The notes under the pieces: generated by a model
The model's input: the letters and a program-made list of their open reading frames with translations, nothing else
Told to the model about the DNA's origin: nothing
Database searches by the model: none
Made by a program: the position numbers and the translations under genes
Shown: positions 613 through 16,109 of the stretch, one piece after another
Layout: each line of letters starts with the position of its first letter
How positions within the stretch are numbered: position 1 is the stretch's first letter
Origin: a virus
Virus record (IMG/VR): IMGVR_UViG_3300046515_000144
Coordinates: 1-22,661 of that record
Length of the DNA stretch: 22,661 bases
Strand: one strand, 5' to 3'

Positions 613-640
613 TGGTGGAGCCGGGGGGATTTGAACCCGC
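613..640 (-). other. ssrA: attL: 3' end fragment of tmRNA gene (ssrA)
   Basis: On the minus strand this reads as a T-arm (GGGTTCAAATC) followed by CCCCCGGCTCCACCA, which is how Pseudomonas tmRNA genes end. Only this 3' tail is present: the sequence further right does not continue as tmRNA, and one base of the T-stem is mispaired (C opposite C near 637). That fits a crossover in the shared core, with phage DNA starting around 637-640. The phage should carry a replacement 3' end that restores ssrA at the far right junction, outside this window. The leftward-pointing integrase ~1.5 kb inside supports this. The boundary of the core cannot be fixed without attR. Confidence 0.7.
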
Positions 641-788
641 GTCTAAGGCCCGGATCCCGTGGCTTCCAGTGATAAGGCTGGCATAAAGCTGTCATTAGCC
701 AGTGAGCATTTCTAAACCGAGCATCAGATCCTTTTGGAAATCATCATCACTAGTGGCAAACTGATTATCCGACACAATTTTCAAAGGA

Positions 789-1781
789 ATGAGCGTGGCT
801 ACCCTCGTTGAAGCTCTTGACTGGCTTCCAAAACACTATGGTCATCTAGATGCCGAAGCGGAGCACCGCGTTCCGGACAAGTACTATTCTCCAGGATTTA
901 TCGCCGCGTTTGCCGCCTATCTGACCTACAAGCGTGTAAATCAGAGGTCTGTCGTTTTTGATAACGAGAACCACGAAGGGTATTTTTCAGCCGTCGGTCT
1001 GGCTAAGGCGGTCTGGGGGGTAGACGATTACCAGTATGAGCGCAAGAATGCTGGAGTGAACTATGCTCCGTTGACGCCGCTAGCCTCGCAGGACGACGTT
1101 GATAAAGCGACCGCCCAGATCAACAGCTGCCTCAGATCGTTTGCGCGTTCTGGACCTGTGGATTACGGTAGAAGCCCTGCCTTTAAAGAACTCACACACG
1201 TCGTGGGTGAAATGCACGACAACGTGTGGTCCCATGGTCTCAACACTGGCTTCTCTGTGGCTCAGCGACATGCCATCAGAAACGGTTTAGGCCATGCCAT
1301 CGAGTTTTCCTTGGCGGATTGTGGCATGGGCTTTCTTGAGGAGCTGAAACGTTCCCGGATAGCTGGCGTTAAGGGTATTGTCTCCGATCGGGACGCCGTT
1401 GAGTGGTGTGTACAAGAGGGGAACTCATCAAAGCTTGCTAAGCTCGAAGATGAGTGGGCCCAGTCAGTTCCAGAGGACTTTCTTGGATCTGCTCCCTTTG
1501 GTGAGGTCGGAGTCGTTTTATCTGGAAATGGTAACCATCACCAAGGTCTAGGTCTGGCGAAGCTGGTCGAGCTCGCTAGGTCATACGAAGGTGTGTTGAA
1601 CATAGCATCAGGCGACTGCTTAATGATGCTGAGACGTGGTGGAAACCCCAGTTTCAGAAGGCTTTCACAGCCATGGAGAGGTGTCGCTGTTTCGCTTTCC
1701 ATTAAAGAATCTAGCCTCATGGCCGCTAGGGTTGATGAGGCTGAAGATGTACGAGACATTATGGATTTATTGAGGGGGTAA
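789..1781 (+). CDS. GHKL (Bergerat-fold) ATPase, prophage cargo gene
   Basis: 330 residues. A GHKL ATP-binding fold is visible in the second half: N-box with E141, N145 and H149 (VVGEMHDNVWSH), G1 box D177-C-G-M-G181, and G2 box HQGLGLA at 251-257, closing with strand WRGVAVSLSI. These are the nucleotide-binding elements of the HATPase_c superfamily (histidine kinases, anti-sigma kinases, MutL, Hsp90, MORC). No transmembrane segment, histidine phosphoacceptor domain or receiver domain is seen. The N-terminal ~120 residues match no family I know. The AAAGGA ribosome site touches this ATG but sits 6 bases before an in-frame GTG at 795, so the real start may be 795. It is followed after 2 bases by a STAS-like gene, forming a two-gene unit. 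GC content looks lower than in the phage core. Function unknown; an ATPase/partner-switch or phage-defence role is inference. Confidence 0.8.
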   Translation: MSVATLVEALDWLPKHYGHLDAEAEHRVPDKYYSPGFIAAFAAYLTYKRVNQRSVVFDNENHEGYFSAVGLAKAVWGVDDYQYERKNAGVNYAPLTPLASQDDVDKATAQINSCLRSFARSGPVDYGRSPAFKELTHVVGEMHDNVWSHGLNTGFSVAQRHAIRNGLGHAIEFSLADCGMGFLEELKRSRIAGVKGIVSDRDAVEWCVQEGNSSKLAKLEDEWAQSVPEDFLGSAPFGEVGVVLSGNGNHHQGLGLAKLVELARSYEGVLNIASGDCLMMLRRGGNPSFRRLSQPWRGVAVSLSIKESSLMAARVDEAEDVRDIMDLLRG

Positions 1782-1783
1782 TT

Positions 1784-2068
1784 ATGGAAACGTTTGCCTT
1801 TAGGCACAGTGACCTAGCTTCCCGAAGCCTCGCCTCGAAGGAACGGAGCGCGTTATACCGAAAACTGCATGATCATGAGCAGATCGTGATCGACCTTGCA
1901 TCGGTAGAATCCATCTCCGAATCCTTTGCCGACGAGCTTTTCGGCGTATTGGTGCTTGAACGAGGTTTTGACTTCGTGATCAAGCACGTCAAAATTATCA
2001 ACGCTGCTGACGATGTGCTTCGTTCCATTGCTATCGCAATGAAGCGGCGGAGGGCTGTCGCTGCCTAA
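1784..2068 (+). CDS. STAS-like DUF4325 family protein
   Basis: 94 residues. The core, IDLASVESISESFADELFG, has the DUF4325 pattern: hydrophobic strand, 'V-x-x-I', then S-F-A-D-E-L-F. This family has a STAS-like fold, and STAS proteins bind GHKL kinases in the SpoIIAA/SpoIIAB partner switch. The serine pair in SISESF is where a phospho-acceptor would be expected in an anti-anti-sigma protein. The gene starts 2 bases after the GHKL gene, with a GGGGG ribosome site overlapping the upstream stop region, so the two are translated as a pair. A terminator lies ~18 bases after the stop, so the cassette has no other member. Family call is good; the biological role is unknown. Confidence 0.75.
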   Translation: METFAFRHSDLASRSLASKERSALYRKLHDHEQIVIDLASVESISESFADELFGVLVLERGFDFVIKHVKIINAADDVLRSIAIAMKRRRAVAA

Positions 2069-2085
2069 ACCGCAGAGACATCAGA

Positions 2086-2113
2086 GAAGGGGCTATTTGG
2101 CCCCTTCTTTTTT
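2086..2113 (+). terminator. Rho-independent terminator of the GHKL/DUF4325 cassette
   Basis: Perfect 8-bp stem GAAGGGGC / GCCCCTTC, loop TATTTG, then TTTTTT. It overlaps the last codons of the convergent integrase gene and insulates the two transcripts. Confidence 0.85.
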
Positions 2114-3274
2114 GCCAGCATTATTGTTGGCGCCCTCCCACAGGCCCTCAGCTCGTTGTCCAGCGCTTAAATCTGCGGCCGGCATCCATCGTCCGTATAC
2201 CCTGGCAATCATCGTCCAGTCGCTATGCCCCATCTGCTGAGCTACCCACATCGGATGCTCGCCCGCAGAAAGCATCATTGAAGCGTAAGTGTGCCGAGTT
2301 TGGTAAGGGCGCCGGTACCGTACGCCTGCCTTCTTCACTGCATGTGCCCACATCGTTTTCCGAATCGGCCCGTCCCCAGTCCAACGCGCGAGGGTACGGG
2401 GATTCTGAAACACCTCCTCCCCAGCCAGAAAGGTATGCTCTTTCTGCGCTTTCAATGCTGTCATTGCCGGGCCAAGCAGCTTCACCGCGCGCCGGCCTGC
2501 AGCTGTCTTTGGAATCTCCGCTGCTCCCCTTGAGGCCTGGGTCATTGCCCTGGTGATCATCACCTCGCCCCGGATAAAGTCCACGTCCCCCCAGTCAAGT
2601 GCCACCAGCTCGCTCGTTCGCAGACCTGTCCACAACGCGAACTGCACCAAGTTGGCCGCTTGCCCAGTCAGTGCAGCGATGATTGCGCGCTGCTCTTCCG
2701 GACTGAACGGATCGACTTCATCCTCTTCTGTGGGCGCGGCCTTGCGCTTGTAAGTCCAGCCGGCCATTGGGTTGTTCTCGATCAACTCTTCGTCGACCGC
2801 CTCCGTGATGGCAGAACGGAGACAGCTCTGGATGTTGCTCAGCGTCTTGTTACCAATCTCCAGCGTGTCGAGCCAGTCCTTGATCATTTTCCGCTTCAGG
2901 TCGACCATCATGTGCGTGCCTAGGGCTGGCACGAGTCGGTGCTCGACGAGCTTGCGATACCCTTCGTAGGTGCTGCTGGAAAGGTGCTTCTTCTTCGACG
3001 CGAGCCACCTGGTCAGGAAACCCGCGACCGTTTCATGTGAAGCCTCCGGCGCAAACTTCGCAGCCCTGGCCGAACCCGGGAAGGTAACCGAGTAATCGAA
3101 CGCTCCGATGGAAATCGCGTGTTCGATCGCCGCCTTGTGCTGTTCGGCCTTCTTCAGATTAGTGGCGGTGGGCTTGAGCGTGATGCGCTCGCGGCACCGG
3201 ACGCCCCGATACATGAACGTGATTTCGATGCTCGAATCGGAGATCGCCCGAACTCCCCGCCCGTCTCTACCCAT
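2093..3274 (-). CDS. int: Phage tyrosine integrase (N-terminal DUF3596 arm-binding domain)
   Basis: 393 residues, a normal length. The N-terminus (about 1-60; ITFMYRGVRCRERITL then an ATNLKKAEQH stretch) is the arm-site DNA-binding DUF3596 type. A SAM-like core-binding domain follows (~80-170), then the catalytic domain: first Arg in LWTGLRTSELVAL, second Arg in YQTRHTYASMML, His in QQMGHSDW and the nucleophilic Tyr in ARVYGRWMP. The box II position usually filled by His is Tyr (YQTRH), which I recall as common in this subgroup. It catalyses attP x attB recombination. It points at the attL scar at 613-640 and its start overlaps the excisionase gene by 121 bases. Confidence 0.95.
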   Translation of the reverse strand: MGRDGRGVRAISDSSIEITFMYRGVRCRERITLKPTATNLKKAEQHKAAIEHAISIGAFDYSVTFPGSARAAKFAPEASHETVAGFLTRWLASKKKHLSSSTYEGYRKLVEHRLVPALGTHMMVDLKRKMIKDWLDTLEIGNKTLSNIQSCLRSAITEAVDEELIENNPMAGWTYKRKAAPTEEDEVDPFSPEEQRAIIAALTGQAANLVQFALWTGLRTSELVALDWGDVDFIRGEVMITRAMTQASRGAAEIPKTAAGRRAVKLLGPAMTALKAQKEHTFLAGEEVFQNPRTLARWTGDGPIRKTMWAHAVKKAGVRYRRPYQTRHTYASMMLSAGEHPMWVAQQMGHSDWTMIARVYGRWMPAADLSAGQRAEGLWEGANNNAGKKEGAK

Positions 3275-15174: not shown

Positions 15175-15597
15175 TCAGGCTGCCTCGACCGACACAGACA
15201 AACGCTTGCCCAGCGCAGAGAGCGCTGCCTCGACCTGCTCGATCTTCGAGCTGTGTTCGAAGTCCACCAGGCGATCAACTTTGGTCTGAGACGACTGCAG
15301 CAACCTGGCCAGATCGGCCTTGCGCATATTGGCCTCGCGCATCGCGTTCCACAGCGACACCTTCGCCGCCACCAGCGTTGGCAGATGCACAAGGCGTTCG
15401 CCTTCTGACGGGGCCGAGGGAAGTGGGATCGGCCGAGACTGATCGACGTAAATCGACAGAGCGAGTTCAAGCCCTTCGACGGCATTGGCCAAGAGCTCTT
15501 CTTCGGTATCGCCAGCGCTGTGTGCTTCTGGGATATCCCGGCACGAGGACCAGAACGAACCGGCCTCGGCATGGATCTTTACTGCATAGCTGTACAT
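15175..15597 (-). CDS. hicB: HicB-type antitoxin
   Basis: 140 residues. The N-terminal domain (~1-55: MYSYAVKIHAEAGSFWSSCR, then DIPEAHSAGDTEEELLANAV, EGLELALSIYV) is the HicB partial RNase-H-like fold that covers the HicA active site. The C-terminal part (~80-135: LWNAMREANMRKADLARLLQ, SSQTKVDRLVDFEH) is an HTH that should bind the operator. It lies downstream of hicA, the usual order, with ~50 bases between. Neutralises HicA and represses the operon. The HTH class (Xre-like) supports autoregulation at the palindrome 15870-15902. Confidence 0.9.
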   Translation of the reverse strand: MYSYAVKIHAEAGSFWSSCRDIPEAHSAGDTEEELLANAVEGLELALSIYVDQSRPIPLPSAPSEGERLVHLPTLVAAKVSLWNAMREANMRKADLARLLQSSQTKVDRLVDFEHSSKIEQVEAALSALGKRLSVSVEAA

Positions 15598-15902: not shown

Positions 15903-15934
15903 AATATTTCCGTAGTGGTGCGGGAAGCCATAGC

Positions 15935-16109
15935 CAGGGTGGGCCTTCGGGCAGGGCCTGGACGCGGTAAAGCCGGAAAGTCACGCGTTGCTGAAGAACA
16001 CCGGCAGTCGACGGGCCTCAAATCCTCTTGTGTGCTCGGGGTGGCGTCGGCGGGCAGCGTGGGAAGACACGCAAACCATTTCGAGCCTCGGCAGTTGCCG
16101 GGGCTTTTT
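15935..16109 (+). ncRNA. Candidate structured RNA / late leader
   Basis: No gene is seen between 15903 and 16126. The plus strand can form several stems: CCAGG...CCTGG (15935-15962) enclosing a GCC-TTCG-GGC tetraloop hairpin, ACGCG...CGCGT, GCGTG...CACGC (about 16059-16075), ending in the terminator at 16084-16109. No known RNA family recognised. It could be a small RNA, or simply the leader of the gene at 16127. Confidence 0.3.
16084..16109 (+). terminator. Rho-independent terminator before the gene at 16127
   Basis: 10-bp stem AGCCTCGGCA / TGCCGGGGCT (one T-G pair) with a very short loop, then TTTTT. Sits 17 bases before the next start codon, so late read-through (Q) would be needed to express the genes beyond from an upstream promoter. 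Confidence 0.75.

What the first reader, a model, noticed from the sequence alone, without database searches (positions are those of the whole stretch)
789..2113. GHKL ATPase + STAS-like DUF4325 two-gene cassette in the att-int cargo slot
A GHKL protein with intact N, G1 and G2 boxes (E141/N145/H149, D177-x-G-x-G181, GLGLA at 253-257) but no kinase phosphoacceptor is coupled (2-base gap) to a DUF4325 protein. It has its own terminator and lies between attL and int, the place where prophages carry host-affecting cargo such as defence modules. GC looks lower than the core (one counted 60-base line: 53%, against 67% for one dnaB line). GHKL plus STAS is the partner-switch combination, yet no sigma factor is present. 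The ATPase N-terminal ~120 residues match nothing I know. Defence, or a sensor switch acting through the STAS protein, are hypotheses.
Basis: partly seen in the sequence, partly recalled or inferred. Interest (0 to 1): 0.75.

Follow-up and report, generated by a model that had tools for sequence, protein, structure and literature searches.

The report
Prophage kinase–STAS switch without effector
Two neighbouring genes at the edge of a Pseudomonas-type prophage look like an ATP-using protein kinase and its small target protein, a sensor switch that related systems use to trigger anti-phage defence, but here no effector gene is attached, so how it acts is open and can be tested.

Summary
In detail: a 330-aa GHKL protein (789-1781) is followed 2 bases later by a 94-aa DUF4325 (STAS-like) protein (1784-2068), between an ssrA 3' fragment (att) and int. 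The pair is an old, conserved unit: 75 of 76 related loci have both genes adjacent (the exception is cut by a contig end), under strong purifying selection, with kinase motifs invariant and STAS Ser47 invariant. The 'unknown' N-terminus is not orphan: profile comparison aligns nearly the whole protein with VapK-type STAS-GHKL kinases. The recently described CapK/CapS and VapK/VapS/VapC (EMBO J 2026) work as ssDNA-activated kinase plus STAS substrate in immunity. Our family is a separate clade, lacks the CapS winged helix, VapC and any conserved third gene, and sits in prophage cargo positions: P2 defence hotspot 1, directly behind cI (rex-like), and att-int. A sister clade (31 viral loci) carries a third, one-TM gene and often uses the same att-int slot. 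Best reading: a two-gene kinase-STAS switch carried as lysogenic cargo, probably for phage exclusion; effector and trigger unproven. New variant of a known kind.

The parts
613..657 (-). 3' end of ssrA (tmRNA), the attachment-site side of the prophage
   Evidence: tmRNA family match in this record, E 9e-8, below the family's cut-off because only the 3' end is present
789..1781 (+). GHKL Ser/Thr-kinase-like protein, 330 aa (VapK/CapK-like, phrog_3364)
   Evidence: ORF; phrog_3364 E 4e-38; AF2 pLDDT 85.6; GHKL folds in PDB; profile match to VapK-type kinases prob 97.6, E 4e-12 over 259 columns
789..1058 (+). N-terminal STAS-like domain (about residues 1-90)
   Evidence: aligned to the STAS domain of VapK-type kinases; ordered alpha/beta segment in the AF2 model
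1197..1235 (+). N box, residues 137-149 (HVVGEMHDNVWSH)
   Evidence: D144, N145, H149 41/41; E/D141 41/41
1317..1331 (+). G1 box DCGMG (177-181)
   Evidence: D177, G179, G181 41/41
1545..1559 (+). G2 box GLGLA (253-257), after a disordered ATP lid
   Evidence: G253, G255, L256 41/41; low pLDDT 220-250
1784..2068 (+). DUF4325 STAS-like protein, 94 aa, presumed kinase substrate
   Evidence: PF14213 E 5e-14; family profile matches PDB 9z7o VapS, E 4e-4
1922..1924 (+). codon of Ser47, candidate phospho-acceptor
   Evidence: Ser in 41/41 homologues and 54/55 with sister families
2083..2110 (+). terminator hairpin shared with the convergent int
   Evidence: -23 kcal/mol, z -4.4, followed by T-rich tail
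2093..3274 (-). tyrosine integrase bounding the cargo slot
   Evidence: Arm-DNA-bind_2 and Phage_integrase, phrog_1

Best explanation
The cassette is a two-gene kinase-STAS switch carried as lysogenic cargo by temperate phages. The 330-aa protein is a VapK/CapK-like Ser/Thr kinase: an N-terminal STAS-like sensor domain fused to a GHKL catalytic domain. The 94-aa DUF4325 protein is its substrate, most likely phosphorylated on Ser47. At rest the STAS protein is unmodified; a signal of infection or DNA damage (by analogy single-stranded DNA bound between the STAS-like and GHKL domains) turns the kinase on, and phosphorylation changes what the STAS protein, or the freed kinase, binds. The end result is probably exclusion of a superinfecting phage or arrest of the infected cell. 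Shown here: gene pair, predicted fold, catalytic residues, invariant Ser, homology, conservation, location. Inferred: kinase activity, the phosphosite, the ssDNA trigger, the defence outcome. Unknown: the target, since no third gene is attached.
For: Both genes adjacent in 75 of 76 non-window loci; dN/dS 0.04-0.12 in pairs where it can be computed. Kinase aligns over residues 6-316 with VapK-type kinases, prob 97.6, E 4e-12; STAS with their STAS proteins, prob 96, E 4e-9; closest solved structure to the STAS profile is VapS. CapK and VapK biochemistry and VapKSC anti-phage activity: PMC13373217. Position 32, aligned with a Phe of a Pseudomonas-family VapK, is F/Y/W/H in 39 of 41. A model of the L050 kinase joined to its STAS by reading through the stop has pLDDT 89 and pTM 0.86, which fits a docked pair. 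Cargo positions: 31 of 46 viral loci lie by P2 gene A and/or Q, the locus of old/tin and defence hotspot 1 (PMC9122126, PMC9519451), also in the three E. coli prophages examined, one beside DarT-macro; directly after a cI repressor on the same strand in six distinct contigs; between tRNA-Ser and int in L050, beside tRNA-Gly in L051. Next to PD-Lambda-1-like T5orf172 genes in Billgrantia and HsdM in Marinobacter.
Against: No anti-phage activity has been measured. No effector: no wHTH, no PIN toxin, no conserved neighbour. Several chromosomal copies sit among housekeeping genes. Ser47 lies one residue after VapS Ser48 in the ungapped alignment, so the phosphosite is not settled. The fused model has no inter-domain error matrix and no negative control.
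Confidence: 0.58

Rival explanations
1. The pair is a regulator of the prophage itself: DNA damage turns on the kinase and the STAS protein alters repressor or integrase control, tuning induction.
For: In six distinct contigs the pair is directly downstream of cI on the same strand, gaps 16-98 bp; CapK responds to DNA damage (PMC13373217).
Against: The pair also sits in P2-like phages far from the repressor, beside int in others, on a Leptospira plasmid and in chromosomes without recognised phage genes. A gene tied to one phage's control would not be expected to move between unrelated phages. The rex genes of lambda, also behind cI, are exclusion genes (own knowledge).
Confidence: 0.17
2. It is a classical partner switch: the GHKL protein is an anti-sigma factor acting on a host sigma factor, with the STAS protein as antagonist.
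For: Same domain pair as SpoIIAB/SpoIIAA; invariant Ser in the STAS protein.
Against: No sigma factor gene was recognised next to the pair in the surveyed loci; the spread from gammaproteobacteria to Leptospira, Planctomycetes and Myxococcota would need one conserved host sigma target; the closest profile relatives found are VapK-type kinases.
Confidence: 0.1
3. An orphan sensor module: it drives an effector encoded elsewhere in the host or in a co-resident element, such as a membrane protein like that of the sister clade.
For: The sister clade has a one-TM gene directly downstream in 31 of 31 viral loci and often the same att-int slot; the Leptospira members of our own family have a predicted membrane protein a few bases upstream.
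Against: The two-gene form is conserved under strong selection in many hosts without such a gene nearby. A search of whole host genomes for a detached effector was not made.
Confidence: 0.15

Closest known systems
VapKSC (PMC13373217): STAS-GHKL kinase VapK, STAS antitoxin VapS, PIN toxin VapC
   Same: Kinase domain order STAS-GHKL, gene order kinase then STAS, conserved Ser region, homology by profile; VapS is the best solved match
   Different: No PIN toxin and no C-terminal inhibitory helix on the STAS protein; separate clade; phosphosite one residue off in the alignment
CapK/CapS (PMC13373217): HTH-STAS-GHKL kinase and STAS-wHTH repressor upstream of immune operons
   Same: Kinase plus STAS substrate, N-box Asn, conserved Ser
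   Different: No HTH on the kinase, no wHTH on the STAS protein, no immune operon downstream
Sister three-gene kinase-DUF4325-TM cassettes seen here (L100, L102-L108, L119-L124, L126-L156)
   Same: Kinase then DUF4325; prophage or integrase-adjacent location, often the same att-int slot
   Different: Third gene with one predicted TM; kinase clade distinct, SH-aLRT 96-98
SpoIIAB/SpoIIAA, RsbW/RsbV partner switches
   Same: GHKL Ser kinase and STAS protein with Ser at the start of helix 2
   Different: No sigma factor; extra N-terminal STAS-like domain on the kinase
lambda rexAB and P2 old/tin (cargo positions, not homologues)
   Same: Lysogenic-conversion genes at the same positions: behind cI, and between P2 A and Q
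   Different: Unrelated proteins
Shedu type I-D, VcSduA (PMC12137116)
   Same: GHKL ATPase in an anti-phage protein
   Different: Single protein with DUF4263 nuclease; none here

Membership tests
GHKL (Bergerat) ATPase/kinase superfamily | N, G1 and G2 boxes in a Bergerat fold | tested here: met
   Invariant motifs; AF2 model with GHKL-only top PDB matches; no Pfam HATPase model reaches threshold
DUF4325 (PF14213) | Match over the curated cut-off | tested here: met
   52.2 bits against cut-off 23
VapKSC | STAS-GHKL kinase homologous to VapK | tested here: met
   hhalign prob 97.6, E 4e-12, against an alignment of 8 kinases that includes one VapK
VapKSC | VapC-like PIN gene in the operon | tested here: not met
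   No third gene in the window; no conserved same-strand neighbour in about 40 family loci
VapKSC | C-terminal helix of VapS that blocks VapC | tested here: not met
   The window STAS protein is 94 aa, ending a few residues after the STAS core; some relatives have 20-30 extra residues
CapKS | wHTH domain on the STAS protein | tested here: not met
   94 aa with a single DUF4325 match
CapKS | HTH at the kinase N-terminus | tested here: not met
   hhalign aligns our residue 6 onward with the STAS-GHKL part; no Pfam HTH
CapKS | Immune operon directly downstream | tested here: not met
   The next gene in the window is the convergent int; neighbours differ between loci
CapK/VapK-type switch | Kinase activated by ssDNA and phosphorylating a STAS Ser | not testable with these tools
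   Residues compatible; needs biochemistry
Sigma-factor partner switch | Cognate sigma factor | tested here: inconclusive
   None recognised beside the pair; host genome of the window not held
Anti-phage defence system | Measured protection against phage | not testable with these tools
   Only context evidence

The most novel reading that the evidence does not exclude
A minimal two-gene anti-phage system in which the kinase-STAS pair is sensor and effector at once, acting on a host or phage target with no toxin, transcription factor or membrane gene attached, spread among unrelated temperate phages and occupying their defence-cargo slots.
Probability: 0.35. Interest if true: 0.8.

Novelty: new variant of a known kind. 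Interest (0 to 1): 0.62.

Why it matters
GHKL kinase plus STAS pairs were tied to bacterial immunity only in 2026 (CapKS, VapKSC). This family shows the same switch travelling as prophage cargo in at least four positions, including the P2 hotspot and directly behind cI, with no known effector. It makes a simple question testable: what does a phosphorylated STAS protein do to an infected cell when there is no wHTH and no toxin? The sister clade with a one-TM third gene suggests a wider set of outputs on one sensor module.

Tried and rejected
PADLOC, NCBIfam and Pfam gave no family for the kinase. tblastn found no relative of the kinase among 50,697 phage records, so the family is known from prophage contigs and genomes. 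Single-sequence search of solved structures found nothing. Direct profile comparison of the kinase with our own STAS family found nothing; the link for the N-terminus came only through VapK-type kinases. Promoter scan is at chance level. Low GC as a sign of foreign origin: considered and judged weak. tblastn with a VapS fragment found no vapKSC in plasmids or phages, only DUF4325 scraps. A scan for VapK in viral contigs with one sequence found none. Paper searches for GHKL plus STAS in phage defence found only PMC13373217 and the unrelated GHKL Shedu. Supplementary tables were not readable here, so I cannot exclude that the pair is listed, uncharacterised, among the 169 P2-hotspot systems of PMC9122126.

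Full report
What is there. The window is an IMG/VR virus record of 22,661 bases. From the left it holds the end of an aldo/keto-reductase-like gene (by eye), a terminator-like hairpin (580-607), the 3' end of ssrA on the minus strand (613-657), then two coupled genes, 789-1781 and 1784-2068, and the convergent integrase 2093-3274. A strong hairpin at 2083-2110 overlaps the end of int and so serves both transcripts. DnaB-like helicase, repressor, replication protein and large terminase follow. The cassette therefore lies between the attachment side and int, as reported.

The proteins. The 94-aa product is DUF4325, a STAS-like family (PF14213, 52 bits against a cut-off of 23). The 330-aa product matches no Pfam, NCBIfam or PADLOC model but belongs to phrog_3364, function unknown (E 4e-38). 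With 41 sequences in the alignment AlphaFold2 gives mean pLDDT 85.6 and pTM 0.83; the low-confidence part, 220-250, is where a GHKL ATP lid would lie. Foldseek's top PDB matches are all GHKL proteins, Hsp90/TRAP1, topoisomerase II and GyrB, with probability about 0.99 but E-values just above 0.001 and low TM-scores, so this is a divergent Bergerat fold. D144, N145, H149, D177, G179, G181, G253, G255 and L256 are invariant in 41 sequences and position 141 is always acidic.

A conserved pair. Scans found 46 viral-contig loci and 29 genomic loci plus a Leptospira plasmid. In 75 of these 76 loci a DUF4325 gene follows the kinase gene directly; the one exception ends at the contig edge. Some loci are the same contig held in two collections, so the independent number is lower: 46 clusters at 90% identity, the window included. 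dN/dS is 0.04-0.12 for both genes in the pairs where it can be estimated. The family reaches Planctomycetes, Myxococcota and Leptospira. In E. coli it is rare: 25 of 5,426 complete genomes.

What it is related to. The profile of the STAS family finds one relevant solved structure, Escherichia VapS (PDB 9z7o, E 4e-4). That led to PMC13373217 (EMBO J, June 2026): CapK (HTH-STAS-GHKL) phosphorylates a Ser of CapS (STAS-wHTH) when ssDNA activates it and de-represses immune operons; [quoted passage not shown] To test kinship I sampled DUF4325 genes from 148 genomes of one Pseudomonas family (10 positive) and 392 enterobacterial genomes (8 positive) and read their neighbourhoods. One is a clear vapKSC (L101; the third protein has a PIN domain). 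An alignment of eight such kinases compared with our family aligns residues 6-316, probability 97.6, E 4e-12; the STAS proteins align with probability 96, E 4e-9. So the N-terminal domain that matched nothing corresponds to the STAS domain of VapK-type kinases. Residue 32, aligned with a Phe of L101 VapK, is F, Y, W or H in 39 of 41 sequences; whether it is the residue called F54 in VapK or W68 in CapK could not be checked.

The candidate phosphosite. Ser47 is invariant in our family (41/41) and Ser in 54 of 55 sequences once the sister families are added. In the ungapped alignment VapS Ser48 falls one residue earlier (numbering worked out from the 18-residue difference between chain and protein length). 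From memory the SpoIIAA site has the register of Ser47. The site is therefore a good candidate, not settled.

The two proteins together. In L050 kinase and STAS genes are in one frame, so a read-through of the stop gives a single chain. Its model has pLDDT 89 and pTM 0.86, higher than the kinase alone. A floating STAS domain would be expected to lower pTM, so docking is likely; there is no error matrix and no negative control.

Where it sits. (1) In 31 of 46 viral loci P2 gene A and/or portal gene Q flank the pair; in all three E. coli prophages examined it lies between A and Q, once beside a DarT-macro pair. This is where P2 carries tin and old and where PMC9122126 and PMC9519451 describe a defence hotspot. 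(2) In six distinct contigs the pair follows a cI-type repressor on the same strand with gaps of 16-98 bases (repressor of L066), the position of rexAB in lambda. The Francisella phage KIRK table lists CI, a 293-aa protein and a DUF4325 protein in that order (PMC7924643). (3) In the window and L050 it lies between an RNA gene and int, with different RNA genes (ssrA, tRNA-Ser); L051 has tRNA-Gly beside it. (4) Some lambdoid prophages carry it near the late genes; in L015-L017 a P2 portal fragment follows it, a trace of transfer from a P2-like phage. On the family tree the position labels need 9 changes over five classes (the 'other' class is mixed and several branches are weak). This is the behaviour of mobile lysogenic cargo, not of a gene tied to one phage's life cycle.

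What it lacks. No same-strand neighbour is conserved across about 40 loci except cI in group 2, and a membrane protein upstream in Leptospira. There is no wHTH, no PIN toxin and no immune operon. By contrast a sister clade of kinases (SH-aLRT 96-98) carries a third gene with one predicted TM segment in 31 of 31 viral loci, with an integrase directly after it in 17, and uses the att-int slot beside tRNA-Ser or ssrA in enterobacterial genomes. The TM calls rest on a simple hydropathy score. The PADLOC model PDLC02567 named DrmA matches a VapK at positions 133-274 and our STAS protein at 322-392, which suggests that the same module is fused into some DISARM proteins.

Judgement. That this is a kinase-STAS switch is, in my view, about 0.8 likely; that its main job is exclusion of other phages about 0.6; the joint statement 0.58 (the two are not independent). 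The trigger (ssDNA) and the target are inferred or unknown. It is not a member of CapKS or VapKSC by their defining parts, but it very likely works like their sensor half.

Noticed in passing
L100, L102-L108, L119-L124 and L126-L156: Three-gene cassette GHKL kinase + DUF4325 + protein of about 155-237 aa with one predicted TM segment; 31 of 31 viral loci have all three genes and 17 have an integrase directly after them. Not in PADLOC 2023 and not found in the papers searched; looks like an uncharacterised membrane-effector version of the same switch.
   Followed up: partly
PADLOC model PDLC02567 (DrmA, 1750 positions): Matches a VapK-type kinase at 133-274 and the window's STAS protein at 322-392, suggesting that a kinase-STAS module is fused to some DISARM DrmA proteins.
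   Followed up: no
L015-L017: Lambdoid prophages carry the pair followed by a fragment of the P2 portal gene, a trace of transfer from a P2-like phage.
   Followed up: partly
L101:4950-6813: A complete vapKSC operon (kinase, STAS, PIN protein) in a genome of the Pseudomonas family.
   Followed up: partly
L007:6943-9192 and L049: Leptospira version of the pair has a 323-aa predicted membrane protein a few bases upstream, a possible effector.
   Followed up: partly
window 15928-16009: Proteo-phage-1 RNA, 72 bits.
   Followed up: no
window 15175-15597 (minus): 140-aa ORF that by eye resembles HicB-type antitoxins; no search made.
   Followed up: no
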